The notes below the pieces were generated by a model, which made no database searches, was not told the origin of the DNA, and worked only from the letters and a program-made list of their open reading frames with translations. Shown here piece by piece: positions 1,905 to 45,655 of a stretch of 64,000 bases of DNA (position 1 is the first letter of the stretch; the number at the start of each line of letters is the position of its first letter). The stretch lies in NCBI RefSeq assembly GCF_008831155.1, contig NZ_WBKB01000001.1, forward strand, positions 558,001 through 622,000. Reading direction: 5' to 3'. Made by a program: the position numbers and the translations under genes. The stretch is from Gulosibacter chungangensis. Its GTDB lineage: Bacteria; Actinomycetota; Actinomycetes; Actinomycetales; Microbacteriaceae.

Positions 1905-2867
1905 TCAGAGCTCGAGCACAATTCGAGACCGCACGCCCCCGCCGGCCACCGTCGCGAGCGCGGCCGCAGCATCCTCGAGCGGGAACACCTGAACATCCGG
2001 GGTCGCGATGCGCCCCTCGGCAAGCCAGCGCATGATCTCGCGCCACTGCACCTGCATGAAGCCGGGATGCGCACGCGTATACGGCCCCCAGGACGCACCT
2101 CGAACCTCGATGTTCCCCAGCAGGAGCCGGTTGAGCTTCACGGTCGGTATCGACCCGCCCGCATAGCCCACGGTGAGCAGTCGACCGCCCTCGTGGAGAC
2201 TCCGCAGCGATTCCAGCACCACATCATCGGAACCCACCACATCCATGGCAATATCGATGCCGCCGCCCGCTGCCTCGCGAATCTTGGCGGCGGATGCTTC
2301 GGCCACCACAGCATCCGCCCCTCGGCTCAGCAGCAGCTCGCGATCAGCCTCACTGCGCACGAGCGCCACCACGCGAGCACCAATCGCCTTGCCGACCTGC
2401 ACCGCCGCGAGCCCCACACTGCCGGCGGCGCCGGTAACGAGGATGCGGTCGCCGCGACGCGCTCCGCCCCGGCACAGCAGTGCAAAGTGGGCCGTGAGGT
2501 AGGCCAGCGGCATGGCTGCCGCATCAATGTCGGACAGACTCTCCGGTACCGGGCACAACCCAAGCGGCGAGACGCGTACCCACTCCGCCGCGGCACCGTA
2601 CTGCAGCACGCCCGCAACCCGCTCACCCGCTCGAAGGGCCTGCTCGGGGACGTCTTCACGTAAAATTCCGCAGAAATCCGTGCCGAGCGCAAAGGGCAGT
2701 TCTGGTTGGATTTGATAGCGCCCCTGCGAGAGCAGCAGGTCCGGGAAGGAGACTCCGGCCGCACGAATTTCGACCTCGACGGTCCCCGGCTCCGCGGCCG
2801 GTTCTGCAAGGTCAACGAGTTCGACCCCCGAAGGACCAGTTGTTCGTGCCACGATTGCTGCGCGCAT
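1905..2867 (-). CDS. Quinone oxidoreductase-like / zinc-independent MDR family protein
   Basis: About 320 residues of the medium-chain dehydrogenase/reductase superfamily. It has an N-terminal GroES-like fold (residues about 1-120, with LLLSQGRYQ and LGTDFCG) and a Rossmann domain with the signature VTGAAGSVGLAAVQ. Catalytic-zinc Cys/His ligands of alcohol dehydrogenases are not evident, which favours an NADPH:quinone reductase-like enzyme or an enoyl reductase. The ATG at 2867 is preferred over the GTG six bases upstream because a GGGGGAG Shine-Dalgarno is better placed for it. It is divergent from the crotonase gene, with a shared promoter region rich in dyads. It probably starts a transcript that continues into the SDR gene. 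Confidence 0.85.
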   Translation of the reverse strand: MRAAIVARTTGPSGVELVDLAEPAAEPGTVEVEIRAAGVSFPDLLLSQGRYQIQPELPFALGTDFCGILREDVPEQALRAGERVAGVLQYGAAAEWVRVSPLGLCPVPESLSDIDAAAMPLAYLTAHFALLCRGGARRGDRILVTGAAGSVGLAAVQVGKAIGARVVALVRSEADRELLLSRGADAVVAEASAAKIREAAGGGIDIAMDVVGSDDVVLESLRSLHEGGRLLTVGYAGGSIPTVKLNRLLLGNIEVRGASWGPYTRAHPGFMQVQWREIMRWLAEGRIATPDVQVFPLEDAAAALATVAGGGVRSRIVLEL

Positions 2868-2927
2868 GCACACTCACTCCCCCGCCCCTCCGTTAGGGCG
2901 TATTGGACCGCCGGGCGTGGCATCCTG

Positions 2928-3005
2928 CCACTGGGTATCGAGAATACCGACTAGATGACTATCATGATACTCAATTAACCCAGTGGTGTTGCAATCAACC
3001 AGTGG
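2928..3005. promoter_or_regulatory. Divergent promoter region with nested dyads
   Basis: CCACTGGGT at 2928-2936 is mirrored by ACCCAGTGG at 2978-2986, and a further ACCAGTGG lies at 2998-3005. Between them is a perfect 10-bp palindrome, TATCATGATA, at 2960-2969, in an AT-rich stretch between the divergent quinone-reductase and crotonase genes. This looks like a regulator-binding region; the regulator is not in the window. Confidence 0.4.
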
Positions 3006-3031
3006 TTTTCGCGCGATCAAAGGAGATTTCC

Positions 3032-3793
3032 GTGGCAGACGTCGAAATTGTGGACACCGAGCACATCCGCACCGTCCGATTGAACCGCCCCGAACGCCGC
3101 AACGCGTACGACCAAGACATGGCAGTCGCGATGGCCGAAGCCTTCGAATCGGCAGCCGGGTTTGAAATGGTGGTCCTCACCGGCAGCGGCGGTTCGTTCT
3201 GCGCGGGCGGCTATCTCGCGAACCTCGAAAAGGCCGACCCCATCACCATCCGATCGCTCTTTGAGGGCTCGCTTCGGGTGGTGGATGCGATCCGCCAGTG
3301 CCCGCGCCCCGTGATCGCCGCGGTCGATGGCCCGGCTGCGGGCGGCGGTAATGAGCTCGTCGTGGCCTGCGACTTCGCCATCGCCACCGAACGCGCCACC
3401 TTCGGTCAGACCGGACCAAAAGTCGGCTCCGCACCGGTCCTCGGCGCCACGAACCTGCTGCCCATACAGATTGGCGAAAAGCGTGCGCGAGAGATGGCCA
3501 TGATGTGCCGTCGCTATTCCGCGCAGCAGGCACTCGATATGGGCCTGATCAACGAGGTGGTTGCCGATGAGGCGGCACTCGAGGAAGCGATCACGCGTTG
3601 GTCGGATGAAATTCACGCCCTCAGTCCGCGCTATCTCGAAATCACCAAGATCTCTTCAAACCTCTGGTGGAATGAGTCCGCCGACAGCATGCGCGCGGGG
3701 CTCGGGATGCTCCTGCAGGCCGTCGGCAGCGATGACATGCTCGAAGGTGCCCGCGCCTTCATGGAAAAGCGGAAGCCAAAATTCCGCGACTAG
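3032..3793 (+). CDS. Enoyl-CoA hydratase/isomerase (crotonase) family protein, MenB/BadI-like signature
   Basis: The start is GTG at 3032, preceded by AAAGGAG; the frame is open upstream but has no ribosome site there. The 253-residue length is normal for crotonases. The oxyanion-hole regions are present (AGGYLANL near residue 56, GPAAGGGNEL near residue 100). The second catalytic glutamate region reads FGQTGPKVGS instead of the FGxPE of true hydratases. This variant is known from 1,4-dihydroxy-2-naphthoyl-CoA synthase and BadI-type ring-opening hydrolases, and the following GEKRAREMAMMCRRYS also resembles those. It is therefore probably not a simple beta-oxidation hydratase. It is divergent from the reductase gene. 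Confidence 0.85.
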   Translation: MADVEIVDTEHIRTVRLNRPERRNAYDQDMAVAMAEAFESAAGFEMVVLTGSGGSFCAGGYLANLEKADPITIRSLFEGSLRVVDAIRQCPRPVIAAVDGPAAGGGNELVVACDFAIATERATFGQTGPKVGSAPVLGATNLLPIQIGEKRAREMAMMCRRYSAQQALDMGLINEVVADEAALEEAITRWSDEIHALSPRYLEITKISSNLWWNESADSMRAGLGMLLQAVGSDDMLEGARAFMEKRKPKFRD

Positions 3794-3794
3794 G

Positions 3795-3831
3795 TTGCCG
3801 CAATTGATTCGCCGCAACTGATCTGCGGCAA
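3795..3831. repeat. Short inverted/direct repeats after the crotonase gene
   Basis: TTGCCGCA at 3795-3802 pairs with TGCGGCAA at 3824-3831, and the intervening bases contain further copies of CCGCAAxTGAT. It could act as a weak terminator for the crotonase transcript; no U-run follows directly. Confidence 0.35.
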
Positions 3832-3975
3832 TTGATGCGCAGCGTTTTTGACTTCGCGAATAATTCATGCGAAGCTTTTGCCAGCCCCGGTCGGTGATTG
3901 ATCGGGTACTCACGGTTGTGTCATAGCCCCCTGCAGCGCCTTCTTGCGCGACGCCTTCAAACAGCAAGAGTTTTC

Positions 3976-4977
3976 ATGACACCGAAGTCTTTCCGCGCCG
4001 CAACCGCGGCCACCGCATCCATGCTGCTCCTCGGCCTCACCGCCTGCGCGAGTTCATCCGGGACTGCCTCCCCCGACTCCACCACCGAGGCCGAAACCGC
4101 CTCGAACTACCCGCTCACCATCGACAACTGCGGGTACGAGGTCACCTTCGACCAGGCCCCGGAACGCGTGATCACCATCAAATCCTCAACCACCGAGCTG
4201 CTGCTCGCACTCGGCCTTGAAGACTCGATCATCGGCGCATCCTTCCTCGACGGTGAGGTGCCCGAGAAGTGGCTTCCCGATGCATCCGCCCTGACCATCA
4301 TCAGCGATAAGGTGCCCGGCCAGGAGGCCACCCTCGAGCTGGAACCCGATCTCGTCTTCGGCGGCTGGGAATCGAACTTCAGCGCCGAGGGCGTGGGCGA
4401 GCGCGATCAGCTCGAGTCGCTGCTGGTGAATTCCTACGTCGCACCGTCAGCCTGCAAAGACCCGGCGTATATGCCCGACCCGCTCACCTTCGAGGTGCTC
4501 TTCGACGAGATTGCCGAGGCAGGCGCGATCTTCGACGTCCCGGAAGCGGCTGACGCGCTGATTGCCGAGCAGCAAGCCGCACTCGACGCCGTGGAGCCGA
4601 GCACCGAGGGCTACACCGCCCTCTGGTACAGCTCCGGCTCGGATGTCCCCTACGTCGGCGCCGGTAAGGGTTCTCCGCAGATGATTATGGATGCGGCGGG
4701 GCTCGAGAATATCGCCGGGGATGTCGCGGACACCTGGACTTCGATGGGCTGGGAGGCGATCGTCGATGCCGACCCAAACGTGATTGTGCTGATCGACGCC
4801 GAGTGGAATAGCGCCGAGGACAAGATCGAGCGCCTCGAATCGAACCCGGCCACCGCGACCCTCGATGCGGTCACCAATGAGCGCTATGTCATCGTCCCCT
4901 TCGCCTCGGGTGAGGCGGGTGTGCGGAATGTCGAAGCGGTCGCCAGCATCGTCGATCAGCTGAACCAATTGGGCTAG
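3976..4977 (+). CDS. Putative F420-0 (or FO) ABC transporter substrate-binding lipoprotein
   Basis: The ATG at 3976 gives a proper lipoprotein signal (hydrophobic core, then LTAC as lipobox) and a 333-residue protein; the longer upstream frame lacks a signal. The mature protein is of the FecB/BtuF class III binding-protein fold. Features such as YPLTIDNCG, PERVITIKSSTTELLLALG and FLDGEVPE match what I recall of the actinobacterial putative F420-0 transporter binding-protein family (TIGR03868). A matching permease and ATPase follow at once, then cofD, so substrate capture for F420 synthesis is the best guess. A siderophore or corrinoid ligand is the alternative. Confidence 0.8.
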   Translation: MTPKSFRAATAATASMLLLGLTACASSSGTASPDSTTEAETASNYPLTIDNCGYEVTFDQAPERVITIKSSTTELLLALGLEDSIIGASFLDGEVPEKWLPDASALTIISDKVPGQEATLELEPDLVFGGWESNFSAEGVGERDQLESLLVNSYVAPSACKDPAYMPDPLTFEVLFDEIAEAGAIFDVPEAADALIAEQQAALDAVEPSTEGYTALWYSSGSDVPYVGAGKGSPQMIMDAAGLENIAGDVADTWTSMGWEAIVDADPNVIVLIDAEWNSAEDKIERLESNPATATLDAVTNERYVIVPFASGEAGVRNVEAVASIVDQLNQLG

Positions 4978-4979
4978 CT

Positions 4980-6116
4980 ATGAGCAACGCCGTCATCCAG
5001 CGCGCCGCCGGTCGGGCGGCGGGTGTCGCTGGAGAGAACACAGTTCCAGCGACACCCACCGGTGCGCCCCGGCGCCGCGACCGACGCCAGGAACGGTCCC
5101 TCGAACGCGGCAATCGCGCCCGTGCGGGCCTGTGGGCCGGCATCTTTGCCGCGCTGCTGTTCGTCAGCCTCGTGACCGCCATCTGCGTTGGTCCGGCTGA
5201 TATCTCCCCCGGCGACGTCTGGAACACGGTGCTCGCGAAGCTCGGGTTCGCGGAATCCACGCTGTCGCTGCGTGCAGAAGCCATCATCTGGGAGCTGCGC
5301 GTGCCGCGAGTGCTCGTGGCGGCCACCGTGGGCAGCGGCCTCGCGCTCGTGGGTGTCATCATGCAGGCCATTACCCGCAACTCCCTCGCCGACCCCTACC
5401 TGCTGGGGCTGTCTTCCGGGGCATCCCTCGGGGCCGTGGCGGTATTGGTGATCGGCGCATCCCTCGCCCTGCCCTTCGCCGCCTTCCTCGGCGGCGCACT
5501 CGCCCTCGCCGCGACCCTCGCGATCGCCTCGGCTTCGGGACAGTTTGGGGCGGCAAAGGTGGTGCTTGCGGGCGTGGCGGTTTCAGCAATCGCGAGCGCG
5601 ATCACCAGCCTGGTAATTTTCTGGAGCGCCACCGGCGACTCCTTCCGTGAAATTCTCAACTGGATGCTCGGCTCCTTCGCCGGTGCCAACTGGTCGGCAG
5701 TCGCGATTGCGCTCGGCGCAATGCTGCTGATCGGTACGCCGCTGCTCACCACCGCGCAGACGCTCAACGCCTACACCTTTGGGGATATTTCGGCAGCCAG
5801 CCTCGGCATCAACGCCACCCGCACGCGCTGGATGCTGCTGCTCGCCTGTGCGCTCCTCACGAGTTCGCTGGTGTCGGTCAGCGGTTCGATCGGGTTCGTG
5901 GGGCTCGTGATGCCGCATGCCGTACGCCTGCTGGTCGGCAATGACCATCGCAATATTCTGCCGCTGTCCGCCCTCGCCGGCGCGGTCTTCATGGTGTGGG
6001 CTGACACCGCGGCCCGCACCCTCTTTGACCCTCGAGAGCTGCCCGTGGGCATCGTCACCGCGATCGTCGGCGCACCAATCTTTGCGCTCATCCTGATGCG
6101 AAAGCGCGCAGCTTGA
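4980..6116 (+). CDS. Putative F420-0 ABC transporter permease (FecCD family)
   Basis: This 378-residue polytopic protein starts two bases after the binding-protein stop. It belongs to the BtuC/FecCD permease family. After an unusually long, Arg-rich, Pro/Ala-rich cytosolic N-terminus (about 55 residues) come about ten membrane segments. It includes the family regions RVPRVLVAATVGSGLALVG, NSLADPYLLGLSSGA and GSIGFVGLVMPHAVRLLVG, the last being the coupling-helix region that contacts the ATPase. Position between binding protein and ATPase defines a complete importer. A later start is possible, since the first 50 residues are low in complexity. Confidence 0.88.
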   Translation: MSNAVIQRAAGRAAGVAGENTVPATPTGAPRRRDRRQERSLERGNRARAGLWAGIFAALLFVSLVTAICVGPADISPGDVWNTVLAKLGFAESTLSLRAEAIIWELRVPRVLVAATVGSGLALVGVIMQAITRNSLADPYLLGLSSGASLGAVAVLVIGASLALPFAAFLGGALALAATLAIASASGQFGAAKVVLAGVAVSAIASAITSLVIFWSATGDSFREILNWMLGSFAGANWSAVAIALGAMLLIGTPLLTTAQTLNAYTFGDISAASLGINATRTRWMLLLACALLTSSLVSVSGSIGFVGLVMPHAVRLLVGNDHRNILPLSALAGAVFMVWADTAARTLFDPRELPVGIVTAIVGAPIFALILMRKRAA

Positions 6117-6926: not shown

Positions 6927-8011
6927 CCGGCCCGCGTGTCACCGGTCCGAGCGTGACGGACCGGCATGTGACCGGCCAGCGTGAGACCGGGCCGCGTGAG
7001 ACGGGGCCGCGGGTCGTCGTCCTCTCGGGCGGCGTCGGTGGCGCGAAGTTCACCCTCGGAGTACGCGAGTTTCTCCGCCAGCGCTGGCCCGACGGTGAAG
7101 GCGAGACCACAGCCGAACTCAGCGTGATCTGCAATGTCGGCGATGATTTCTGGCTCGCGGGGATGCGCATCACGCCCGACCTCGACTCGGTGATGTATCA
7201 CCTCGCTGGTGAGGCCGATACCGAACGCGGTTGGGGCCGGAAGGACGAGTCCGAGCGCGTCAGTGCCGAAATGACCGCCTACGGGGTCGGTTGGCCCTGG
7301 TTCACGCTCGGCGATCTCGATATCGGCACGCACATCGCCCGCAGCACCTGGCTGCGCGAGGGCCTGACCCTTAGCGAGGTGGTCACCCGGCTCTGCGCGC
7401 GCTGGCAGCTGTCGACGAAGCTCATTCCCGCCACGGATGCGGAGGTCGAGACCCGAGTGCGGGTCGGTGCCACCGAAATGCACTTTGAGGAATGGTGGGT
7501 GCGGCTGCGGGGCAACCCCGGAGCGGATGCGTTTGTACAGCCGGGTGCTGCCGAGGCGGTGCCCTCCCCTGGCGCACTCGCGGCGATCGCCGCTGCTGAT
7601 GTCATTCTCGTGGCGCCCTCCAACCCGGTGGTCTCGATCGGCACGATGATTGGCCTGTCGGGTCCCGCATCCGCCGTACCCGGCATCCCGGGTTTGCGAG
7701 ATGCGCTGCGGGCCGCCGAGGCACCGATCGTTGGCCTGTCTCCCGTCATTGCTGGCAAGCCGCTGCGCGGCATGGCCGATATTTGCCTTGCCACGCTCGG
7801 TATCGAGGCGGATTCCGCCGCGATTGCTCGCGCCTACGGTGCGCGCTCGGCAGGCGGCCTGCTCGATGGCTGGCTGATTGATGAGGCGGATGCGGCGGTC
7901 GAGTTGCCGGGTATTCGGCTCCTGCAGCGCCCGCTCCTCTTCACGAGCCTGGCCGAAACCGCCGCCATCGCCGCGGACGCCTTCGAGATGGCGCTCGCTG
8001 TGCGGGGCTAA
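6923..8011 (+). CDS. cofD: 2-phospho-L-lactate transferase (F420 biosynthesis)
   Basis: CofD (FbiA) joins the activated phospholactyl/phosphoenolpyruvyl-guanosine product of CofC to FO to make (dehydro-)F420-0. The 362-residue protein has the glycine-rich start VVVLSGGVGGAK (residues 31-42), NVGDDFWLAGMRITPDLDSVMY in overlapping form, and the central region VGWPWFTLGDLD expected of the family. Start ATG 6923 overlaps the ATPase stop. The first 30 residues are an unusual repeat of TGPR/TGQR-like units not found in typical CofD; a GTG or a later start could remove part of it. It is the last gene of the plus-strand operon. Confidence 0.93.
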   Translation: MTGPRVTGPSVTDRHVTGQRETGPRETGPRVVVLSGGVGGAKFTLGVREFLRQRWPDGEGETTAELSVICNVGDDFWLAGMRITPDLDSVMYHLAGEADTERGWGRKDESERVSAEMTAYGVGWPWFTLGDLDIGTHIARSTWLREGLTLSEVVTRLCARWQLSTKLIPATDAEVETRVRVGATEMHFEEWWVRLRGNPGADAFVQPGAAEAVPSPGALAAIAAADVILVAPSNPVVSIGTMIGLSGPASAVPGIPGLRDALRAAEAPIVGLSPVIAGKPLRGMADICLATLGIEADSAAIARAYGARSAGGLLDGWLIDEADAAVELPGIRLLQRPLLFTSLAETAAIAADAFEMALAVRG

Positions 8012-8125
8012 CCCGGCGCGGTCGCGCTCGCAGCGGTGGCGATCACAAGAGCCGCCATAGACCCCTCGCTCCCGTCCGCAGGTACGCGTGCCCGGTCTGG
8101 GAAGCGTCAACTCAGCACGATCACG

Positions 8126-8147
8126 GTCCGACGGTCAGCGGTCGGAC
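8126..8147. terminator. Hairpin between convergent cofD and cofC
   Basis: GTCCGAC (8126-8132) pairs with GTCGGAC (8141-8147) in the 145-bp gap between the converging F420 transcripts. There is no clear U-run, so this is only a candidate bidirectional terminator. Confidence 0.4.
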
Positions 8148-8156
8148 GGCTAGCGC

Positions 8157-8780
8157 TCACGGGCGCACCGTCATGATCGCGCCGGTGTGGTGGCCGAGCT
8201 GTTCGGGCTTCAGCTCCGCGAGATCCTCTGCGGTGTCGACGTCGCGGTCGAGCTGCCCAAATCTGCCCCGCAATTCGACGTATCCGAGCGCCTCGTGCTG
8301 CGCCGCCGAGTTTTCCCCAAAGGCGGGGATCAGCAGGCTCGGTTTCGCGGCCGTGAGGAGGGTCGTGCCGGTTCCGGCAGCATCACGGACGAAGGATCTT
8401 GGGAACTCGGTGGCCGCGTAGAGCGCATCCCCCAGATCGCTGGCGCGCAGCGCCGGGAGATCCCCCAGCAAGATGCCGACGCGGTCCTCCGGCTGCGTGT
8501 GACCGAGGCGGGCCACCGCATAGCGGATCGCGGGGTTGAGTCCCTCGGGCGCCTCGCGTAGGAACGCCAGCTTCCGAGCCGTTCCGGCATCAAAGCTGCC
8601 TTCCTGCAGGCTCGGTTCATCGGTCACCACGACCACTCGGCTCACCAGCCCGCACCGGGCCGCGGCAGTGATCGTGTCGAGCGCGAACGCCCCCGCGTAC
8701 TGCGCCCGTCGGTTGTGGCGGATGCGCGACTTGCCGCGGCTGAACTCCTTGACCGGAACGATGATCTGCCACTGACTCAC
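8157..8780 (-). CDS. cofC: 2-phospho-L-lactate (phosphoenolpyruvate) guanylyltransferase
   Basis: CofC (FbiD) makes the GTP-activated intermediate used by CofD. The 207-residue size is typical. The N-terminus ([17 protein letters not shown]) is the conserved nucleotide-binding start of the family, followed by VVVTDEPSL and [15 protein letters not shown], the latter holding the metal-binding GDLP motif. The start is GTG at 8780, overlapping the cofE stop, so cofE and cofC are coupled on the minus strand. In the bacterial pathway the donor is thought to be phosphoenolpyruvate rather than phospholactate; sequence alone does not decide this. Confidence 0.9.
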
Positions 8781-9655
8781 GACGTTTCGTCCTCCGCATT
8801 CTGCGCTCCCGGCGTCGTGGCGTCTGAGCCTCCCGAGCCTGAATCTCCCGTTCCAGACCCACCCGCGCTTGAGCCTCCCGCTCCGCGCACCGAGGCGACC
8901 CCAGCATCAAACCCCTGCTCGAAAGCGAGATCGGTCCCGAGCCGGAAGAAGTCCCGTTCGGCGGGCCGCAAAATCGCCGCCGCTCCGGGGAGGTCGAGCC
9001 CGCCCACAATGTGCCCGAGCCCGCGCACCACGGCCACCGGGTTCCCAGTGGACTTTCGCTTCACGAGGTCCGTCGCACCGGCGAGTTCATCCGCAAGGCA
9101 GGGCATCGTCACCGCGAGCGGACGCCCCGCTGCATCGGTCTTGCCGGCGTAATCCTCGAACACGTGCACCCCGGCGGCACCGATCGCGACATCCGTCTGG
9201 CCCTCCCGCCAGGGCCGCCCGAGCGTGTCCGAGACGATAATCCCGATCTCCACGCCCAGCGCTGCGCGCATCCGCTCGGCGATCTGCCGCGCCGAACCAT
9301 CCGGGTCCACTGGCAGCAGCAGCACCGTGCCTTCGGCGGTGTTGGATGCATCCACCCCGGCGGCAGCGCCAATGATCCCGAGCCGGTTCTCGACGATCAT
9401 GGTCGCCCCGCCGCCCTCCCGCGGGCGCGTGGCGACCACGCGCACGGTCTCTTTCCGAATCGCTTCCTCGCGGTCTTCCGCTTCGACGATGCGACCCTCT
9501 GCCTTGGAGAGAATCTTTGAGGTGATCACCAGAATGTCGCCGTCTTCCAGGGGCTCATCCGGGTCGCGCTCAAGCGCCGCCAGGATCACCTCGACCAGAT
9601 CGTCGCCCGGTTGGATCTCCGGAATCCCCGTCAAGGCCCACACACTCATTCGCAT
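8777..9655 (-). CDS. cofE: Coenzyme F420-0:L-glutamate ligase
   Basis: CofE adds glutamates to F420-0 using GTP. The core ([49 protein letters not shown]) is typical. The start chosen is ATG 9655, which overlaps the stop of the upstream oxidoreductase gene as TAATG; a TTG two codons earlier is possible. Unlike mycobacterial FbiB, no nitroreductase-like domain is fused. After the conserved part the protein ends in about 35 Gly/Ser-rich residues (from GAGGSSAGG to the end), probably a disordered tail. The gene lies in a minus-strand operon with cofC and the LLM oxidoreductase. Confidence 0.92.
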
Positions 9656-10647
9656 TACCAACGCACCCCCGGAATAACCTCGTCGCCATAGACCTTCATG
9701 AACTCGGCCTGATTGCGGCCGACATTGTGGACATAAATATCAGTGAAGCCCATATCCACGTGCCGCTGCAGATAGGCGCGATGCTCCTCCGGGTCCGCAG
9801 AAATAAGCAAGTGTCCCGAAAAATCCTCCGCTCGCACCGTGCGCGCCATCTGCGCGACCTCGTAGGGCGATCGAATGTCCACCTTCGAGAATCGCATCGC
9901 CGCGATCGGCCACTCCTCGATCGCATTCTGGACGGCCCGCTCCTTCGTCTGCGCCCACGAAACTCGCAGCTGGATCACCTTGCGCAAGGCCCCGGCGCGT
10001 TTGCCACCCTCACGGGCGCGCTCGCCGAAGCGACGCAGCAGCAATTCCAGCCGTTCGGGCGGCGCCTCCACCGTGATGAAGCCATCGGCGCTGCGACCCG
10101 CGCGACGGGCCGTGACCGGGCCGGAAGCCGCGACGACAATCTCAGGTGGTCGCACATCCAACCCCCACAGCCGTGTGGATTCGAGCTTGAAATAGCGGCC
10201 CTCGTGGCGGACATCCCGTTCCTCGCGCGCGAAAAGCTTGCCGATCAGCTCGACCGCTTCAAACATCCGCTCCACGCGCGCGTGCGCCTCGGGCCAGTAT
10301 TCCCCCACGATGTGCTCGTTGATCAGCTCACCCGAACCGATGCCGAGCCAGTGCCGGTCGGGATACATCGCCGAGACGGTCGCGGCGGCTTGCGCCACCG
10401 AGGCGGGATGCATCCGGAACCCGGGCGTCGTGACGCAGCCGAGCTCGCCCCGAGTTTGCAGCCCGAGGGCCCCAAGGACGCTCCAGGTGAAGGATGCGTG
10501 GCCCTGGGCGGGCGTCCACGGCTGGAAGCGGTCGCTCATGATGGTGCCGCTGAAGCCGTGCTGTTCTGCCCGGTGTGCGAGTTCGACGGCCTCTGCGGGG
10601 CCGAACTGCTCGAGCCCTACGGCATAGCCAATCGTGTGTCCGCGCAC
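9655..10647 (-). CDS. LLM-class F420-dependent oxidoreductase, glucose-6-phosphate dehydrogenase-like family
   Basis: This is a luciferase-like TIM-barrel protein of about 330 residues. The segment [16 protein letters not shown] corresponds to the F420-binding loop of Fgd1, with the conserved Trp kept but the Fgd1 active-site His (His40) replaced by Arg, so it is probably not a glucose-6-phosphate dehydrogenase. The GTG at 10647 is preferred to the GTG at 10653 because GAGGAG sits five bases before it. It is coupled by TAATG to cofE. Its substrate is unknown. Being in the cofactor operon suggests it is a main F420 user. Confidence 0.88.
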
Positions 10648-40255: not shown

Positions 40256-40287
40256 AATCCCGTGGAAAAGATTTGGAGGTGGTGGAA

Positions 40288-41001
40288 GTGACTCGGCAGC
40301 GCGCATTCGATGAGAGTGCGGATGCGAACCCCAAGGCTCAGCCTCGACGTACGGCCACGGGGCGCAAGCATTCACCCACCCGCGAGCGCCTGCTGCGTGA
40401 GATTGAGCGGCGCGGCTCGGCCTCCACAGCAGAGCTCGTCGAGGCCACGGGCCTCCACGAAAACACGGTGCGCGGTCACCTCGAGCGCCTCCACTCCGAC
40501 GGACATCTGCGCCGCGAAGAGTCGAGTACCGGGGCTCGCGGGCGTCCCGCGGTGCGCTGGCGAACCGTGGATGCACAGGTCGCCTCGCCCTATGCCGGCC
40601 TTGCCGCGACGCTGGCCGAGACCCTCGAACGCACGGTGCCCGATGCGGTGCGCGAGGCTCGGCGCACGGGCACGACCTGGGGCGCCCGGCTCGCCGCCGA
40701 GCGGCAAGACGACAAGGAAGAAACGACACGCAGCCGCGTGCTCGAGGTCATGCGCGAGCAGGGATTTGCGCCTGTGGAGGAAAATTCCGATGCATCCGCC
40801 ACAGCCACCATCGCCCTGCGAGTATGCCCACTGCTCGCCGCGGCCGCCGAGTACTCCGAAGTGATCTGTGCTGTGCACGAGGGCATGATCGAGGGCATCG
40901 CGCGCAGCCAAGACCCAACCGCGAGCGCCGAACTCGAACCCTTCGCTCCGGGCGGCGTCTGCGTGCTGCGACTCCACAGCCAACTGCAGTCGGCATCATG
41001 A
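40288..41001 (+). CDS. HTH transcriptional regulator, SufR/ArsR-like with C-terminal Cys cluster
   Basis: The start is GTG 40288 behind GGAGGTGG; the frame is open 15 bp further. The 237-residue protein has an N-terminal winged helix (LREIERRGSASTAELVEATGL, quoted in part; LHENTVRGHLERL is the recognition region; REESSTGARGRPAVRW is the wing). Its C-terminal half carries three conserved cysteines and a His: RVCPLL, VICAVHEG and GGVCVLRL. This is the arrangement of Fe-S-binding SufR-type regulators. Given the nitrite reductase it precedes, an NO- or redox-sensing Fe-S switch is plausible. It overlaps the next gene by ATGA. Confidence 0.82.
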   Translation: MTRQRAFDESADANPKAQPRRTATGRKHSPTRERLLREIERRGSASTAELVEATGLHENTVRGHLERLHSDGHLRREESSTGARGRPAVRWRTVDAQVASPYAGLAATLAETLERTVPDAVREARRTGTTWGARLAAERQDDKEETTRSRVLEVMREQGFAPVEENSDASATATIALRVCPLLAAAAEYSEVICAVHEGMIEGIARSQDPTASAELEPFAPGGVCVLRLHSQLQSAS

Positions 41002-42263
41002 CCGGCCACCGAGCCACCGCTGGGCGTACGACCGTGTCGACGATCGGGACCAGTGCATCCCGCCGCGGCCCCTCCTGGCGACTGGTGTGGCTCGTTCCCG
41101 CCGCGATCGCGCTGCTGCTCGGTCTCGATGCCGGGTTGCTCCTGCTCGGAGTACCGGCTCCGCTCACCACCGACCGCCTGCCCGATGTGCACGGGATGCT
41201 CCTCGTGCTCGCCTTCGTCGGCACCCTGATCGCCCTCGAACGAGCGACCGCGCTGGGCCGCTGGTGGGGATTCATCGCCCCGGCGCTCCTCGGGCTCGGC
41301 GGGATCCTGCTTGTGGCCTCGCCGGTGCCGCTGCTCGTCGCCAAAGTCGCAGTCATTGCGGGTGCCGCCGCCTTCACGCTCCTCTATATTCCGCTCTGGC
41401 GCAGACAGTTCGACGCACCGCTCCTCGCACAGCTGCTTGGGGCCGCGCTGGGGCTGTGCGGCGCGATCATTTGGCTTGCACAGGATGGCATGGGCCGAGT
41501 GGTGCCTTGGCTGATCGGATTTCTCGTGCTCACCATCGCCGCCGAACGCGTGGAACTCGCCCGCATCACCATGGGTCCGCGCGCGGGCGGGATGCTCCTG
41601 GCGCACGCCTGGGCGGTCACCGGATCTTTGGTCGTCGGCATGGTGCTGCCGGATGCGGGGGCCATCCTGTTGGGCATCTCGCTACTGTCGCTGTGCGGTT
41701 GGCTCGTGCGGCACGATATTGCCCGCCGCACCATCCGCTCCACCGGCGCGACCCGCTATATGGCTGCGTGCATCCTCGCCGGATACGTTTGGCTTGCGGT
41801 CGCCGGAATCGTGCTGAGCTTTGGCGACCCAAGTGCGAATCAGCCCGCTTACGACGCCGTCGCGCACGCGATCTTTCTCGGCTACACCTTTTCGATGATC
41901 ATGGCGCACGCGACCACGATTCTGCCCGCGGTGCTGCACGTCACCCTCCCCTACCGGGCCGCCTTCTGGGTACCGGTTTCGCTGCTGCAGCTGGCGCTGA
42001 TCGTGCGAATCTGGATTGGCGACGGGCTCGGCTACCCCGTCGGCTGGCAGATCGGCGGGGCGCTGAACGTCGCGGCACTGCTGCTCTTCGCGCTGACCGC
42101 GGTGACGAGCGCGATCCTCGGGCCGCCCAAGGCCAAGGAACCCAAAGCATCCGCGAGCACCAAGCAGGCCACTGCACCGCAGCCACCGCGCGACCGGTCG
42201 AAGGCAACCGCCCTAAGTCCCGATCACCTCGACCATCCCGAGCGCCCCGAAGGCACGCAATGA
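40998..42263 (+). CDS. Polytopic membrane protein of the nirK operon (NnrS-/oxidase-subunit-I-like)
   Basis: ATG 40998 overlaps the regulator stop; 421 residues. It has about ten to eleven membrane helices with conserved histidines placed as in heme or copper membrane proteins: LPDVHGMLLVLAF near residue 60, VAHAIFLGYTFSMIMAHATTILPAVLH in the C-terminal half, quoted in part as HAIFLGYTFSMIMAHAT. The overall look is between NnrS and the membrane domain of the next gene. A Lys/Ala/Pro-rich tail follows. It overlaps the nirK-fusion start (ATGA), so the three genes are coupled. Family assignment is tentative. Confidence 0.8.
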   Translation: MTGHRATAGRTTVSTIGTSASRRGPSWRLVWLVPAAIALLLGLDAGLLLLGVPAPLTTDRLPDVHGMLLVLAFVGTLIALERATALGRWWGFIAPALLGLGGILLVASPVPLLVAKVAVIAGAAAFTLLYIPLWRRQFDAPLLAQLLGAALGLCGAIIWLAQDGMGRVVPWLIGFLVLTIAAERVELARITMGPRAGGMLLAHAWAVTGSLVVGMVLPDAGAILLGISLLSLCGWLVRHDIARRTIRSTGATRYMAACILAGYVWLAVAGIVLSFGDPSANQPAYDAVAHAIFLGYTFSMIMAHATTILPAVLHVTLPYRAAFWVPVSLLQLALIVRIWIGDGLGYPVGWQIGGALNVAALLLFALTAVTSAILGPPKAKEPKASASTKQATAPQPPRDRSKATALSPDHLDHPERPEGTQ

Positions 42264-45070
42264 TGTCTCCCTCAGTCCAGCCCTTGACCACCGTTAAACC
42301 GAGCGACGCGGCACCCGGTCGCGGCTTCCGGTTTATGCGCGATATTCCCACCGCGCTGTGGCTGCTGCTCGCGCTGATCGCGACCTTCGTGCACCGCGGC
42401 ATTCCCGAACCGCGCTGGTTGATGATCCACCTGCTGCTGCTCGGCGCGATCACCCACGCCATCCTCACCTGGAGCGAGTATTTCTCCTTCGCGCTGCTTC
42501 GCACTCGCGCGACCAGACGCGATCAAAAACTGCAAAACATCCGTCTGACCTGCTCCAACCTGGGCGCGGTGCTCGTGTTCATCGGTGTGCCTACGGGCAT
42601 TTGGGCGCTCACCGCGGTGGGTTCGGCGGCGCTGATCGTGGCGGTGCTGTGGCATGGCTGGGCGATCGTGCGGCGCGCTCGAGGGAGCCTGCCGGGGAAG
42701 TTCGGCAAGACGATCCGCTACTACGTGGCCTCGGCCGGGCTCCTCGCAATCGGTGCGGTGCTCGGCGCAATCGTCGCCCGAGGGGATGCGGCCCCTCAGC
42801 TCGCGCTTTCACACGCACTGATCAATGTGCTCGGTTGGGTCGGGCTCACCGTGGCCGGGACGGTCGTGACGCTCTGGCCGACGATCCTGCGCACCCGCGC
42901 CGATGAGCACGCGGCCACCTGGGCCATGCGCGCGCTGCCGGTCCTCGCGGTGGGTGTGCTGGTGGCCGCGCTCGGGGCAGCGCTCGCCCTGATGCCACTG
43001 CTGGCAGTGGGTCTGGCCGGATATCTTGCCGGTCTCGGGATGCTCGGGGTTTCGCTCGTACGCGCGGCCCGCAATGCTCCGCCCCGCAGCTTCGCCGCAC
43101 TTTCGGTTGGATGCGCACTGCTGTGGTGGTTCGGCTGTGTGGCCGTGCTCATGGTCGGCACGATCACCAAGCGGCTAACCGGTGGCGGTTTCGAGCAGAT
43201 TCAGGTGCTCATCGATGGCCTTGTGCCGTACCTGGCGGCGGGGTTCGCGGCGCAGGTACTCGTGGGCGCGTTGAGCTATCTCGTTCCCGTGGTGCTCGGT
43301 GGTGGACCTCGCCCCGTCCGTATCGGCACCGTCGCCTTTGACCGGCTCGGGACGCTGCGGGTCACCGTCGCGAATGCCGCGCTCGTGGTCTGTGCCCTGC
43401 CAGTGTCGAGCCTGATGCGGGTGGTTGCATCGCTGCTCTATGTAATCGCGATGGGATCCTTCCTCGTCAATATGTTCCCGGCAATGCGGGCCCAGCGAAA
43501 GGCGAAACAGGCCTTGGCGGGCAAGGCTGCCACGAGGGCTGAATCGGCGGGCGAGGCTGCCGCAAGCGCTGAATCGGCGGGCAAGGTCGCCGCGAACGTT
43601 AAACCGGCGCGCACTGCGGCGGCGACCCCAGACTCGGCGACCCCAAAGCCGGCTCGCCCTGAACGGGCGGCTCCTGAAAAGGGTCGCCGCGCCGGACAGG
43701 CAATGGCAGGACTCGTGACGGTGCTGCTGGCGGCGGTAATTACCGCATCCCTCGACCCGATCGGTGTCGGCTGGGGTGCCGGAGCAGCGGGAGACGCGGA
43801 TGCGCCGGTCACCACGATTCAGGTCGATGCCGCGGACATGACCTTCACGCCGAATGTGCTGGAGGTTCCGGCGGGTAATCGGCTCGTCGTTGAGCTCACC
43901 AATACCGATGCCTCGCAGGTGCACGACTTGGTGTTTGCGAACGGGGTCACGAGTGGTCGTCTCGCGCCTGGCGAGAGTGAAACCATCGATTTTGGGGTGT
44001 TGACCGAGGACTTGGACGGCTGGTGCTCCATCGTGGGACACCGTCAAATGGGGATGACCTTGACGGTCAAGGTGACCGGAGCCGTCGACTCGGCGAACAC
44101 CGCAGATGGTGCTGACTCCAGTGGCGCCGATGACACGAGCGATGCATCCGCCGAGGACGGCCACTCGATGGCCGATATGGACATGGGTGGCGTGGATCTT
44201 ACGGCGGATCCCGGCGCGGGTTTCACACCGTTTGCTGCCGATTTGCCACCCCTCCCCGCCGCGGATGGCCCGACTACCCACGAGGTGACACTCACCGTCA
44301 CCGACGAGGTGCTCGAAGTGGCACCCGGCGTCACACAGACGCTCTGGGTCTACAACGGCAGCGCTCCGGGCCCAACCCTGCACGGTCGAGTGGGCGATAC
44401 CTTCGTGGTCACCCTCGTGAACTACGGCAATATGGGCCACTCGATCGACTTCCACGCGGGAGCGCTCGCCCCTGACGAGCCGATGCGCACCATCGCGCCG
44501 GGTGAACAGCTCACGTACACCTTCACGGCGACCCGCGCCGGGATCTGGATGTACCACTGCTCGACGATGCCGATGTCGGCGCATATTGCGAACGGTATGT
44601 ACGGCGCGGTGGTCATCGAGCCCGACGACCTGCCCGCTGTGGACCGCAGTTATGTGCTCGTCCAGGGTGAGTACTATCTCGGCGATCATGAGGGTGGTGA
44701 GGTCGACATGACCAAGATCGAAGATCGCGCGCCCGACCTCGTCGTCTTCAATGGCTACGCAAACCAATACGATCACGCACCGCTCGAAGCGTCGGTCGGC
44801 GAACGGGTGCGTATTTGGGTGTTGGATGCGGGAATCGAGCGACCCTCGAGTTTCCACATCGTCGGTGGTCAGTTCGACACGGTGTGGAAGGAGGGTGCCT
44901 ACTCGATCAACAACAGTCCGGGCGTCGGCGCACAGGCATTGGATTTGCTGCCCGCACAGGGTGGATTTGTCGAGTTGAGCTTCCCCGAGGCTGGCAACTA
45001 TCCGTTCGTCTCTCACCTCATGATCGACGCCGAACACGGCGCCCACGGCGTCTTCGCTGTCTCCCCCTGA
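42260..45070 (+). CDS. nirK: Copper-containing nitrite reductase fused to a membrane domain and an extra cupredoxin
   Basis: ATG 42260 overlaps the previous stop and gives 936 residues. Residues about 25-450 hold around eleven membrane helices with His residues. An Ala/Lys/Glu-rich linker and one more helix follow (about 495). A cupredoxin (517-605) has a full type 1 site (His555, Cys589, His594, Met597 or 599). An acidic linker leads to a two-domain NirK (673-936). NirK ligands are all present: type 1 His727, Cys767, His775, Met780; type 2 His732, His766, His919; catalytic Asp730 and His866. It should reduce nitrite to NO outside the cell, with the cupredoxin as built-in electron donor. The longer upstream frame lies inside the previous gene. 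Confidence 0.92.
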   Translation: MMSPSVQPLTTVKPSDAAPGRGFRFMRDIPTALWLLLALIATFVHRGIPEPRWLMIHLLLLGAITHAILTWSEYFSFALLRTRATRRDQKLQNIRLTCSNLGAVLVFIGVPTGIWALTAVGSAALIVAVLWHGWAIVRRARGSLPGKFGKTIRYYVASAGLLAIGAVLGAIVARGDAAPQLALSHALINVLGWVGLTVAGTVVTLWPTILRTRADEHAATWAMRALPVLAVGVLVAALGAALALMPLLAVGLAGYLAGLGMLGVSLVRAARNAPPRSFAALSVGCALLWWFGCVAVLMVGTITKRLTGGGFEQIQVLIDGLVPYLAAGFAAQVLVGALSYLVPVVLGGGPRPVRIGTVAFDRLGTLRVTVANAALVVCALPVSSLMRVVASLLYVIAMGSFLVNMFPAMRAQRKAKQALAGKAATRAESAGEAAASAESAGKVAANVKPARTAAATPDSATPKPARPERAAPEKGRRAGQAMAGLVTVLLAAVITASLDPIGVGWGAGAAGDADAPVTTIQVDAADMTFTPNVLEVPAGNRLVVELTNTDASQVHDLVFANGVTSGRLAPGESETIDFGVLTEDLDGWCSIVGHRQMGMTLTVKVTGAVDSANTADGADSSGADDTSDASAEDGHSMADMDMGGVDLTADPGAGFTPFAADLPPLPAADGPTTHEVTLTVTDEVLEVAPGVTQTLWVYNGSAPGPTLHGRVGDTFVVTLVNYGNMGHSIDFHAGALAPDEPMRTIAPGEQLTYTFTATRAGIWMYHCSTMPMSAHIANGMYGAVVIEPDDLPAVDRSYVLVQGEYYLGDHEGGEVDMTKIEDRAPDLVVFNGYANQYDHAPLEASVGERVRIWVLDAGIERPSSFHIVGGQFDTVWKEGAYSINNSPGVGAQALDLLPAQGGFVELSFPEAGNYPFVSHLMIDAEHGAHGVFAVSP

Positions 45071-45088: not shown

Positions 45089-45655
45089 ATGTCGACCATG
45101 ACGACTTCAGCGCAGAGTTTCTTGCCTTACGGGCGGGAGCTGACGCGTGCCGATCTGCAGTCGGTGCCCGATGACGGGTACCGCTACGAACTCATCGATG
45201 GAGTGCTCATCGTGACCCCGGCACCACGAGTGCGGCATCAGCGAGTACTGGCACAGCTCGTGAGGATCTTGCAGGAGTCCGTGCCATCTGACCTCGAAGT
45301 CCTTTTTGCACCCATCGATGTCGTGCTTGCCGACAACACCGTCATCCAGCCCGACCTCTTGGTCGCGCCACACGACGCCTTCACGGAAACCGAACTCCCC
45401 GGCCCACCGCTGCTCGCAGTTGAAGTGGTCTCGCCTTCAACCCGCAGCATCGACATGCTCCTGAAGAAGGAGCGATTGCAGCGCGCCGGTTGCCCTCACT
45501 ACTGGGTCGTGGACCCCGACGAACCGTCCGTCATTGCTTGGGACCTGGTCGACGGTTCGTACGTCGAGGTCGACCGCGCTACCGGTACAGAGACTTTTGA
45601 GGTCGAAATACCCGTTCGTCTGCGACTCACGCCTGACTCGCTGACAGAGGCGTAA
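45089..45655 (+). CDS. Uma2 family protein (restriction-endonuclease-like fold)
   Basis: This 188-residue protein has the Uma2/DUF820 pattern of a PD-(D/E)xK-type fold: YELIDGVLIVTPAP, VIQPDLLVAP, PPLLAVEVVSPSTR and LKKERLQRAGCPHYWVVDP. The usual catalytic residues are seen (E of YELIDG, D of QPDLLV, E of AVEVVS, K of LKKE). Cellular function of the family is unknown; it is expanded in cyanobacteria and scattered in actinobacteria. It starts 18 bp after nirK with AGGGAGG, but probably reached this site independently of the nitrite genes. Confidence 0.9.
   Translation: MSTMTTSAQSFLPYGRELTRADLQSVPDDGYRYELIDGVLIVTPAPRVRHQRVLAQLVRILQESVPSDLEVLFAPIDVVLADNTVIQPDLLVAPHDAFTETELPGPPLLAVEVVSPSTRSIDMLLKKERLQRAGCPHYWVVDPDEPSVIAWDLVDGSYVEVDRATGTETFEVEIPVRLRLTPDSLTEA

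What the first reader, a model, noticed from the sequence alone, without database searches (positions are those of the whole stretch)
42260..45070. Three-part nitrite reductase: membrane domain + cupredoxin + NirK
One 936-residue polypeptide joins about eleven membrane helices, a cupredoxin with a full type 1 copper site, and NirK with every type 1, type 2 and catalytic residue (Asp730, His866). It would take electrons directly from the membrane, pass them through a built-in cupredoxin, and reduce nitrite outside the cell, avoiding a diffusible donor in an organism without a periplasm. The nature of the membrane domain (heme- or quinol-linked) is unknown.
Basis: partly seen in the sequence, partly recalled or inferred. 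Interest (0 to 1): 0.75.

Follow-up and report, generated by a model that had tools for sequence, protein, structure and literature searches.

The report
Nitrite reductase fused to oxidase-fold membrane domain
One bacterial protein joins a nitrite-reducing copper enzyme to a built-in copper carrier and a membrane part predicted to have the fold of respiratory oxidases, reworked, probably so that it can feed electrons straight from the membrane to nitrite.

Summary
In detail: window 42260-45070 (+) encodes 936 aa: membrane domain, cupredoxin with a complete type 1 copper site, NirK with all copper and catalytic residues. The architecture is in print (Helen et al. 2016, PMC4770552: about 900-aa NirK of Propionibacterium acnes with a 400-aa transmembrane domain 'of unknown function').

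What I add is the identity of that domain. A confident AlphaFold2 model (pLDDT 91) has the 12-helix heme-copper oxidase (HCO) subunit I fold (VIA Z 28.4 to cbb3 CcoN, 382 residues). The HCO binuclear-site ligands are gone. Two histidines are invariant in 53 aligned sequences, H57 (helix II) and H185 (helix VI); I infer a bis-His heme b in a pore empty in ordinary oxidases. A 13th helix puts cupredoxin-NirK outside. The overlapping upstream gene encodes a second HCO-fold protein, NnrS-like and homologous to the domain, keeping both low-spin heme ligands. In distant actinobacteria the domain is a separate gene, beside nirK in 6 of 20 loci; 35 of 41 genomes with the domain have NirK.

Best reading: a quinol-to-cupredoxin electron-entry module. 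Fold rests on prediction; heme, quinol and electron flow are inferred.

The parts
42260..45070 (+). 936-aa protein: HCO-fold membrane domain, linker, anchor helix, cupredoxin, NirK
   Evidence: ORF; domains
42317..43531 (+). membrane domain, aa 20-424, 12 helices, predicted heme-copper oxidase subunit I fold
   Evidence: AF2 model; VIA Z 28.4 to 3mk7_A; Foldseek top 1ehk_A E 1.1e-3
42428..42430 (+). His57, helix II, proposed heme ligand (His in 53 of 53 rows)
42812..42814 (+). His185, helix VI, proposed heme ligand (His in 53 of 53 rows)
43532..43702 (+). K/R-rich linker, inferred to lie on the cytoplasmic side
   Evidence: positive-inside rule
43703..43753 (+). 13th membrane helix (aa 482-498), anchor of cupredoxin-NirK
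   Evidence: hydropathy; found in 27 of 28 rows, all but L028 where NirK is a separate gene
43787..44077 (+). cupredoxin domain, type 1 Cu ligands H555, C589, H594, M599
44222..45061 (+). NirK domain with type 1, type 2 copper ligands and catalytic Asp730, His866
40998..42263 (+). upstream protein (421 aa), second predicted HCO-fold membrane protein, NnrS-like; H65, H290, H304 invariant in 29 of 29; ATGA overlaps with both neighbours
   Evidence: model; VIA Z 27.9 to 8smr_E; conservation; hhalign to NnrS
40273..41001 (+). winged-helix regulator with C190, C204, H207, C235 invariant in 24 of 24 (Fe-S type ligand set, inferred); the start codon is not settled

Best explanation
It is a membrane-bound copper nitrite reductase whose electron-entry module is a re-engineered heme-copper oxidase (HCO) subunit I. 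The module has lost the oxygen/NO-reducing heme-copper centre and keeps one pair of invariant histidines, H57 on helix II and H185 on helix VI, near the outer face. I propose that they hold one bis-His heme b in the pore between helices II and VI, which carries no heme in canonical HCOs (recalled). Electrons from menaquinol would reach this heme, pass to the type 1 copper of the tethered cupredoxin outside, then to NirK type 1 copper, type 2 copper and nitrite. In many relatives a second, homologous HCO-fold protein encoded just upstream, with both canonical low-spin heme ligands (H65, H290), would be the partner that takes or relays quinol electrons. Shown: domains and copper ligands (sequence), invariant His pairs, operon layout, co-occurrence. 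Predicted: HCO fold of both proteins. Inferred: topology, heme, its pore, quinol as donor, electron path.
For: Fold: model of aa 1-425, pLDDT 91.0, pTM 0.89; the 50 rows shown are all HCO superfamily, Z 22.4-28.4, best cbb3 3mk7_A 382 residues at 3.6 A, cNOR 4xyd_A Z 27.1. Upstream protein Z 27.9 to cbb3 8smr_E, 348 residues, 3.6 A. The two are homologous: hhalign E 1.7e-5, probability 78.5, 322 columns with H57 on H65; reversed controls 0.16 and 0.18. H57 and H185 are His in 53 of 53; no other His is invariant. Upstream H65, H290, H304 29 of 29. Register: the second helix X His (low-spin heme ligand, recalled) is H-x4-G in the CtaD, FixN and NorB held here and in 11 of 12 NnrS, as in upstream H290-G295 (29 of 29) and H57-G62 (53 of 53); H185-x6-G192 (52 of 53), upstream H65-x6-position 72 (Gly in 27 of 29; Ala in the window) and NnrS H68-x6-G75 (12 of 12) have the other register, i.e. 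the other helix face. Hence upstream = canonical II/X site, fused domain = II/VI site. Linkage: domain and NirK fused in one clade, separate neighbours in L028 and in 6 of 20 distant loci; 35 of 41 genomes with the domain have NirK (E<=1e-20) against 32 of 255 without, Fisher p 7e-21, phylogeny not corrected. Open problem in Gram-positives: Bacillus azotoformans NirK was reported to use menaquinol by an unclear route (passages, PMC3475470).
Against: No heme, quinol or activity data. The heme position rests on register and pseudo-symmetry; I could not measure distances in the model. The +7 Gly register is not seen at the canonical helix II heme His (position +7 is Met, Ala, Trp in CtaD, FixN, NorB). 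hhalign to HCO sequences is weak and not stable: H185 falls on the FixN helix II heme His in one run (E 0.0026; reversed 0.65 and 0.28) and on the helix IX-X region in a run with fewer sequences (E 0.012), while the structural match runs helix by helix. Foldseek has no match at E<=0.001 (top 1.1e-3); by E the first non-HCO row is at 0.13 (prob 0.33), but a rhodopsin at E 0.36 has prob 0.97 with TM 0.31. The profile finds no HCO sequence in the PDB; PF00115 is hit by 1 of 18 rows (E 0.0021), behind two unrelated families. 6 of 41 genomes with the domain have no NirK hit at E<=1e-20, and 14 of 20 distant loci show no NirK in the stretch fetched. The upstream gene is absent in five fused loci (L134-L138) and near L027 and L040. 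Published doubt that an N-terminal cupredoxin passes electrons to NirK.
Confidence: 0.55

Rival explanations
1. The HCO-fold parts are NnrS-like NO-protection or metal-handling modules: they bind heme (and perhaps copper) to cope with the NO that NirK makes, or to load copper, and do not feed electrons to NirK, which gets them from elsewhere.
For: The upstream protein aligns end to end with 12 NnrS (hhalign E 0.0028, 338 columns; reversed 0.16 and 0.053), with H65 and H290 on NnrS H68 and H313. The own genome has NarG but only one PF00115 protein, an A-type oxidase (CtaD by its sequence), and no PF22085 domain. A regulator of Fe-S type heads the operon; Rrf2 regulators lie near the domain gene in L101 and L115, and a gene similar to them in L108.
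Against: Tethering of the domain through a conserved anchor helix to cupredoxin-NirK in one clade suggests a need for proximity, as for electron transfer. The fused domain itself shows no NnrS similarity above its reversed controls (0.071 against 0.066 and 0.071).
Confidence: 0.27
2. H57 and H185 do not share a heme: H57 sits at the canonical low-spin heme position with an unusual second ligand, or the two bind copper or a quinone instead.
For: H57 aligns with upstream H65, the canonical helix II ligand. Q332 (52 of 53) and P343 (53 of 53) are conserved on helix X.
Against: The helix X ligand position (323) is Pro, Val, Leu, Ala and others, never common as His; H57-x4-G62 has the opposite register from upstream H65.
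Confidence: 0.13
3. The membrane domain is only an anchor, a decayed oxidase kept for tethering.
For: The HCO ligands of helices VII and X are lost.
Against: H57, H185, W53, G62, G169 and P343 are the same in 53 of 53 rows and the domain exists as a free-standing gene near nirK; the 13th helix would suffice as anchor.
Confidence: 0.05

Closest known systems
Long actinobacterial NirK (Propionibacterium acnes type; Helen et al. 2016, PMC4770552)
   Same: About 900 aa, N-terminal 400-aa transmembrane domain, cupredoxin, NirK (passages)
   Different: Nothing in architecture; there the domain is of unknown function, here it is assigned the HCO fold and an HCO-fold partner gene. An earlier source is alluded to there; Ellis et al. 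2007 is its reference 20 and was not read
Hyphomicrobium denitrificans NirK (PDB 2dv6; organism recalled and named)
   Same: N-terminal cupredoxin fused to NirK; best PDB match
   Different: No such membrane domain in the 447-residue chain
Heme-copper oxidase superfamily subunit I (CcoN of cbb3, NorB of cNOR)
   Same: 12-helix fold over 382 residues, a helix II His
   Different: No helix VII His pair, no helix X HxH, hence no binuclear site
NnrS
   Same: Upstream protein: end-to-end weak similarity and the same II/X His pair
   Different: Far under Pfam threshold (best E 2.6); the fused domain lacks the helix X His
qNOR
   Same: HCO fold, idea of direct quinol use
   Different: Binuclear-site ligands missing in the domain; the NorB cytochrome-c-like domain PF22085 is in 0 of 60 relatives

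Membership tests
Copper nitrite reductase NirK | type 1, type 2 copper ligands and catalytic Asp/His | tested here: met
   H727 C767 H775 M780; H732 H766 H919; D730 H866
Copper nitrite reductase NirK (TIGR02376 equivalog) | score over the cut-off of 296.3 bits | tested here: not met
   166.6 bits, E 8.7e-49: a clear homologue, divergent from the canonical equivalog
Long actinobacterial NirK | TM domain + cupredoxin (CX4HX4M) + NirK in one chain | tested here: met
   C589 x4 H594 x4 M599
Cupredoxin | Pfam match and His-Cys-His-Met site | tested here: met
   PF13473 42.2 bits over 27; H555 C589 H594 M599
HCO superfamily subunit I (fold) | 12-helix subunit I fold | tested here: met
   by prediction: AF2 model, VIA Z 28.4, 382 aligned, 3.6 A
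HCO superfamily subunit I (as enzyme) | helix VII His pair and helix X HxH for the binuclear centre and low-spin heme | tested here: not met
   absent in the alignments; position 323 not His
HCO superfamily subunit I (sequence family PF00115) | PF00115 match | tested here: inconclusive
   1 of 18 rows at E 0.0021, behind two unrelated families
NnrS (upstream protein) | PF05940 over its cut-off | tested here: not met
   1 of 14 rows, E 2.6
NnrS (upstream protein) | helix II and helix X His in the same register | tested here: met
   H65, H290 aligned to H68, H313 of S. meliloti NnrS, His in 12 of 12 NnrS
Menaquinol-nitrite oxidoreductase (function) | heme b content and quinol-driven nitrite reduction | not testable with these tools
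   needs protein

The most novel reading that the evidence does not exclude
The HCO fold has been turned into a quinol-to-copper electron wire: the fused domain carries a heme b in the third pore of the three-fold pseudo-symmetric barrel (between helices II and VI), and a homologous NnrS-like HCO-fold partner carries one in the canonical pore, so that two oxidase relatives without an oxidase site power a copper nitrite reductase. NnrS and this domain would be branches of one non-catalytic HCO superfamily.
Probability: 0.4. Interest if true: 0.8.

Novelty: new variant of a known kind. Interest (0 to 1): 0.62.

Why it matters
How copper nitrite reductases of Gram-positive bacteria, which lack a true periplasm, get electrons from the quinol pool is unsettled (for Bacillus azotoformans see PMC3475470, passages). 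Naming the unknown domain of the long actinobacterial NirK as an HCO fold with one invariant His pair, with an HCO-fold partner in the same operon, gives two residues to mutate and one partner gene to delete. It also suggests that the HCO fold, known for O2 and NO reduction, was recruited as a plain electron-transfer module.

Tried and rejected
Sequence routes to the domain's identity failed: no Pfam or NCBIfam family over a cut-off in the domain; profiles of the domain and of the upstream protein match only chance-level PDB rows (1 row at E 1; 2 rows at E 0.085 and 0.99). NnrS by Pfam: 1 of 148 class genomes at E<=0.001, 0 over the cut-off. hhalign of the first profiles: domain against upstream protein E 0.001, probability 21; shallow HCO and NnrS sets gave nothing reliable; larger sets did. 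In one search one of the 12 NnrS rows (L141) had been read in a wrong frame; I repeated it with the annotated frames (E 0.0057 became 0.0028; the figures are the ones used). The upstream protein against five HCO sequences: E 0.022 (reversed 0.34 and 0.75), too weak to use.

Considered and rejected: an NO reductase or oxidase fused to NirK (binuclear ligands missing); a cytochrome c fusion (no CxxCH in the protein); circular permutation of the domain relative to the upstream protein (hhalign is colinear); the upstream gene as an obligate partner (five fused loci L134-L138 lack it).

Dropped rows and partial sets: L034 (same locus as L024), L067 and L068 (repeats) were left out, and L111 (275 aa, broken) was not counted: 53 of 54 rows. 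One search fetched stretches from 20 of the 41 genomes with the domain; several stretches are cut by contig ends, so nirK in 6 of 20 is a lower bound. Pfam scans of neighbours covered 20 chosen ORFs.

Literature: searches; no title or abstract start in these listings named an HCO fold for this domain. The library is open-licence PMC only. I saw passages of PMC4770552, PMC8756737 and PMC3475470, no whole text; Ellis et al. 2007 was seen only in a reference list; Nojiri et al. 2007 is not held. HCO ligand roles and the emptiness of the third HCO pore are recalled.
Full report
OBSERVATION. Window 42260-45070 (+) is one open frame of 936 aa; a DNA search of the window's own genome finds this one place. 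The NirK part matches solved NirKs, best 2dv6_A; the cupredoxin part matches PF13473. The gene starts in an ATGA overlap with the gene before it (stop 42263), which in turn starts in an ATGA overlap with a regulator gene (stop 41001).

ALREADY IN PRINT. Helen et al. 2016 (PMC4770552, passages) describe the about 900-aa NirK of Propionibacterium acnes with a 400-aa transmembrane domain of unknown function plus cupredoxin, and say that all actinobacterial NirK in their set have the cupredoxin but not all the membrane domain. So the three-part architecture is known; what was open is the membrane domain and the electron route.

THE MEMBRANE DOMAIN. No Pfam or NCBIfam family over a cut-off and no PDB sequence match covers it. 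I aligned the domain from the window and 17 named-record relatives (A2) and modelled it: 425 residues, pLDDT 91.0, pTM 0.89, which I read as twelve membrane helices. Foldseek puts HCO chains on top (1ehk_A E 1.1e-3, prob 1.00; none at E<=0.001); the first non-HCO row by E is at 0.13 with prob 0.33, and a rhodopsin at E 0.36 has prob 0.97 with TM 0.31. VIA-align gives Z 28.4 to CcoN of cbb3 oxidase (3mk7_A, 382 aligned, 3.6 A, 15% identity) and Z 27.1 to NO reductase 4xyd_A; all 50 rows shown are HCOs.

After the twelve helices come a K/R-rich linker and a further hydrophobic stretch (aa 482-498 in the window), found in 27 of the 28 aligned rows; the exception, L028, has cupredoxin-NirK as a separate gene. 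With helix I going outward, the linker is inside and cupredoxin-NirK outside; this topology is inferred.

THE PARTNER. Gene 40998-42263 encodes a 421-aa membrane protein. Its model (pLDDT 87.1) is also an HCO fold: Z 27.9 to CcoN 8smr_E (348 aligned, 3.6 A), Z 26.9 to 4xyd_A. It is near the system in 25 of 29 loci (L021-L050 without the repeat L034; one of the 25, L031, in pieces); of the four without it, L045 and L046 hold little or no DNA upstream, and L027 and L040 lack it. In 60 relatives, 12 of 13 genomes with the domain or cupredoxin-NirK have it; G045 does not, and G051 has a weak match without the system. Five further fused loci (L134-L138) lack it, and four loci have it without the domain or NirK nearby (L128, L129, L131, L132). 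So it is common but not obligate. Profile comparison shows it to be homologous to the fused domain (E 1.7e-5, 322 columns; reversed controls 0.16 and 0.18) and weakly, end to end, similar to NnrS (E 0.0028, 338 columns; reversed 0.16 and 0.053; 12 NnrS sequences from named plasmid records). The fused domain shows no such NnrS signal.

LIGANDS. In 53 domain sequences, 19 of them free-standing-type rows at 24-30% identity to the window, only H57 (helix II) and H185 (helix VI) are invariant His. H132 (helix IV) is His in 33: all rows of the fused group except L028, and none of the 19 distant rows. The HCO helix VII His pair and helix X HxH are absent. In 29 upstream sequences H65 (II), H290 and H304 (X) are invariant. 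In the CtaD, FixN and NorB held here and in 11 of 12 NnrS, the helix X His is followed by Gly at +5; H290-G295 and H57-G62 show this register. H185-G192, NnrS H68-G75 and upstream H65 with position 72 (Gly in 27 of 29, Ala in the window) are at +7, two residues or about 200 degrees round the helix, hence the opposite face. In the upstream protein the two faces meet in the canonical low-spin pore (II/X); in the fused domain they meet in the pore between II and VI. Against this: the helix II heme His of CtaD, FixN and NorB has no Gly at +7. hhalign to HCO sequences lays H185 on the helix II heme His of FixN (E 0.0026; reversed 0.65, 0.28), a four-helix shift that would fit HCO three-fold pseudo-symmetry, but a run with fewer sequences laid the same region on helices IX-X (E 0.012). 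The site assignment is inference; distances could not be measured.

DISTRIBUTION AND LINKAGE. The domain is in 41 of 296 Actinomycetota genomes. NirK (E<=1e-20) is in 35 of these 41 and in 32 of the other 255 (p 7e-21); at E<=1e-50, 28 of 41 against 6 of 255. Phylogeny was not corrected. The upstream protein is in 11 of 296, 6 of them with the domain and 7 with NirK. Of 20 distant loci fetched, nirK lies beside the domain gene in 6 (nirK first in L098, L100, L102, L108, L115; domain first in L113); of the other 14, L110 and L116 have the upstream-type gene nearby and L101 only cupredoxin matches. The tree puts all 32 rows labelled fused in one well-supported group of 34 that also holds L070 (no cupredoxin or NirK match in the stretch held, L139) and L028 (fission). 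Fusion, fission and adjacency together argue for a functional unit.

REGULATION AND PATHWAY. A regulator of one family lies near the system in 24 of 29 loci, with C190, C204, H207 and C235 invariant in 24 of 24, an Fe-S type ligand set (inference). The own genome has NarG, one PF00115 protein, CtaD by its sequence, and no PF22085 domain, so NO is the expected end product of this branch unless another enzyme removes it; other NO-removing enzymes were not sought.

MECHANISM. Most likely: menaquinol reduces a heme b in the fused domain (with or without the upstream heme protein) and the tethered cupredoxin carries the electron to NirK outside. In doubt: the published view that the N-terminal cupredoxin of Hyphomicrobium NirK is too distant; no membrane donor is fused there. 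My odds: HCO fold about 0.93; heme b in the domain about 0.7; electron-entry role about 0.55.

VERDICT. Known architecture, new identity for its unknown part, testable mechanism.

Noticed in passing
L031 (G039), ORFs 7344-9857 and 9263-10126 on - strand: Upstream-type protein lies in two frames and runs directly into anchor helix, cupredoxin and NirK without the fused HCO domain; the NirK end departs from its relatives and an integrase-like gene follows: it looks like a decaying locus.
   Followed up: partly
L032 (G052) 2476-5136: HCO domain plus cupredoxin with no NirK match after it on the contig.
   Followed up: no
L115 5039-6556: NirK with a cupredoxin match at the C-terminus instead of the N-terminus, next to the free-standing HCO-domain gene.
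   Followed up: no
L101, L108, L115: Related short genes near the free-standing domain gene; in L101 and L115 they match Rrf2 regulators.
   Followed up: partly
L128, L129, L131, L132: Upstream-type NnrS-like protein without HCO domain or NirK in the stretch fetched.
   Followed up: no
G275:C1: Four NirK-profile matches in one genome, one in an 1135-aa open frame, with no HCO domain of this family.
   Followed up: no
window 44162-44185, aa 635-642: His/Met-rich stretch (HSMADMDM) in the cupredoxin-NirK linker; several relatives have H/M-rich linkers too, possible copper binding.
   Followed up: no
upstream protein, window 40998-42263: Third invariant His (H304) plus invariant E81-R82 and E183-R184 towards the inner ends of helices II and VI, possibly a proton or quinone site.
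   Followed up: no
window 45089-45655: Uma2-type gene (putative restriction endonuclease family PF05685) directly downstream.
   Followed up: no
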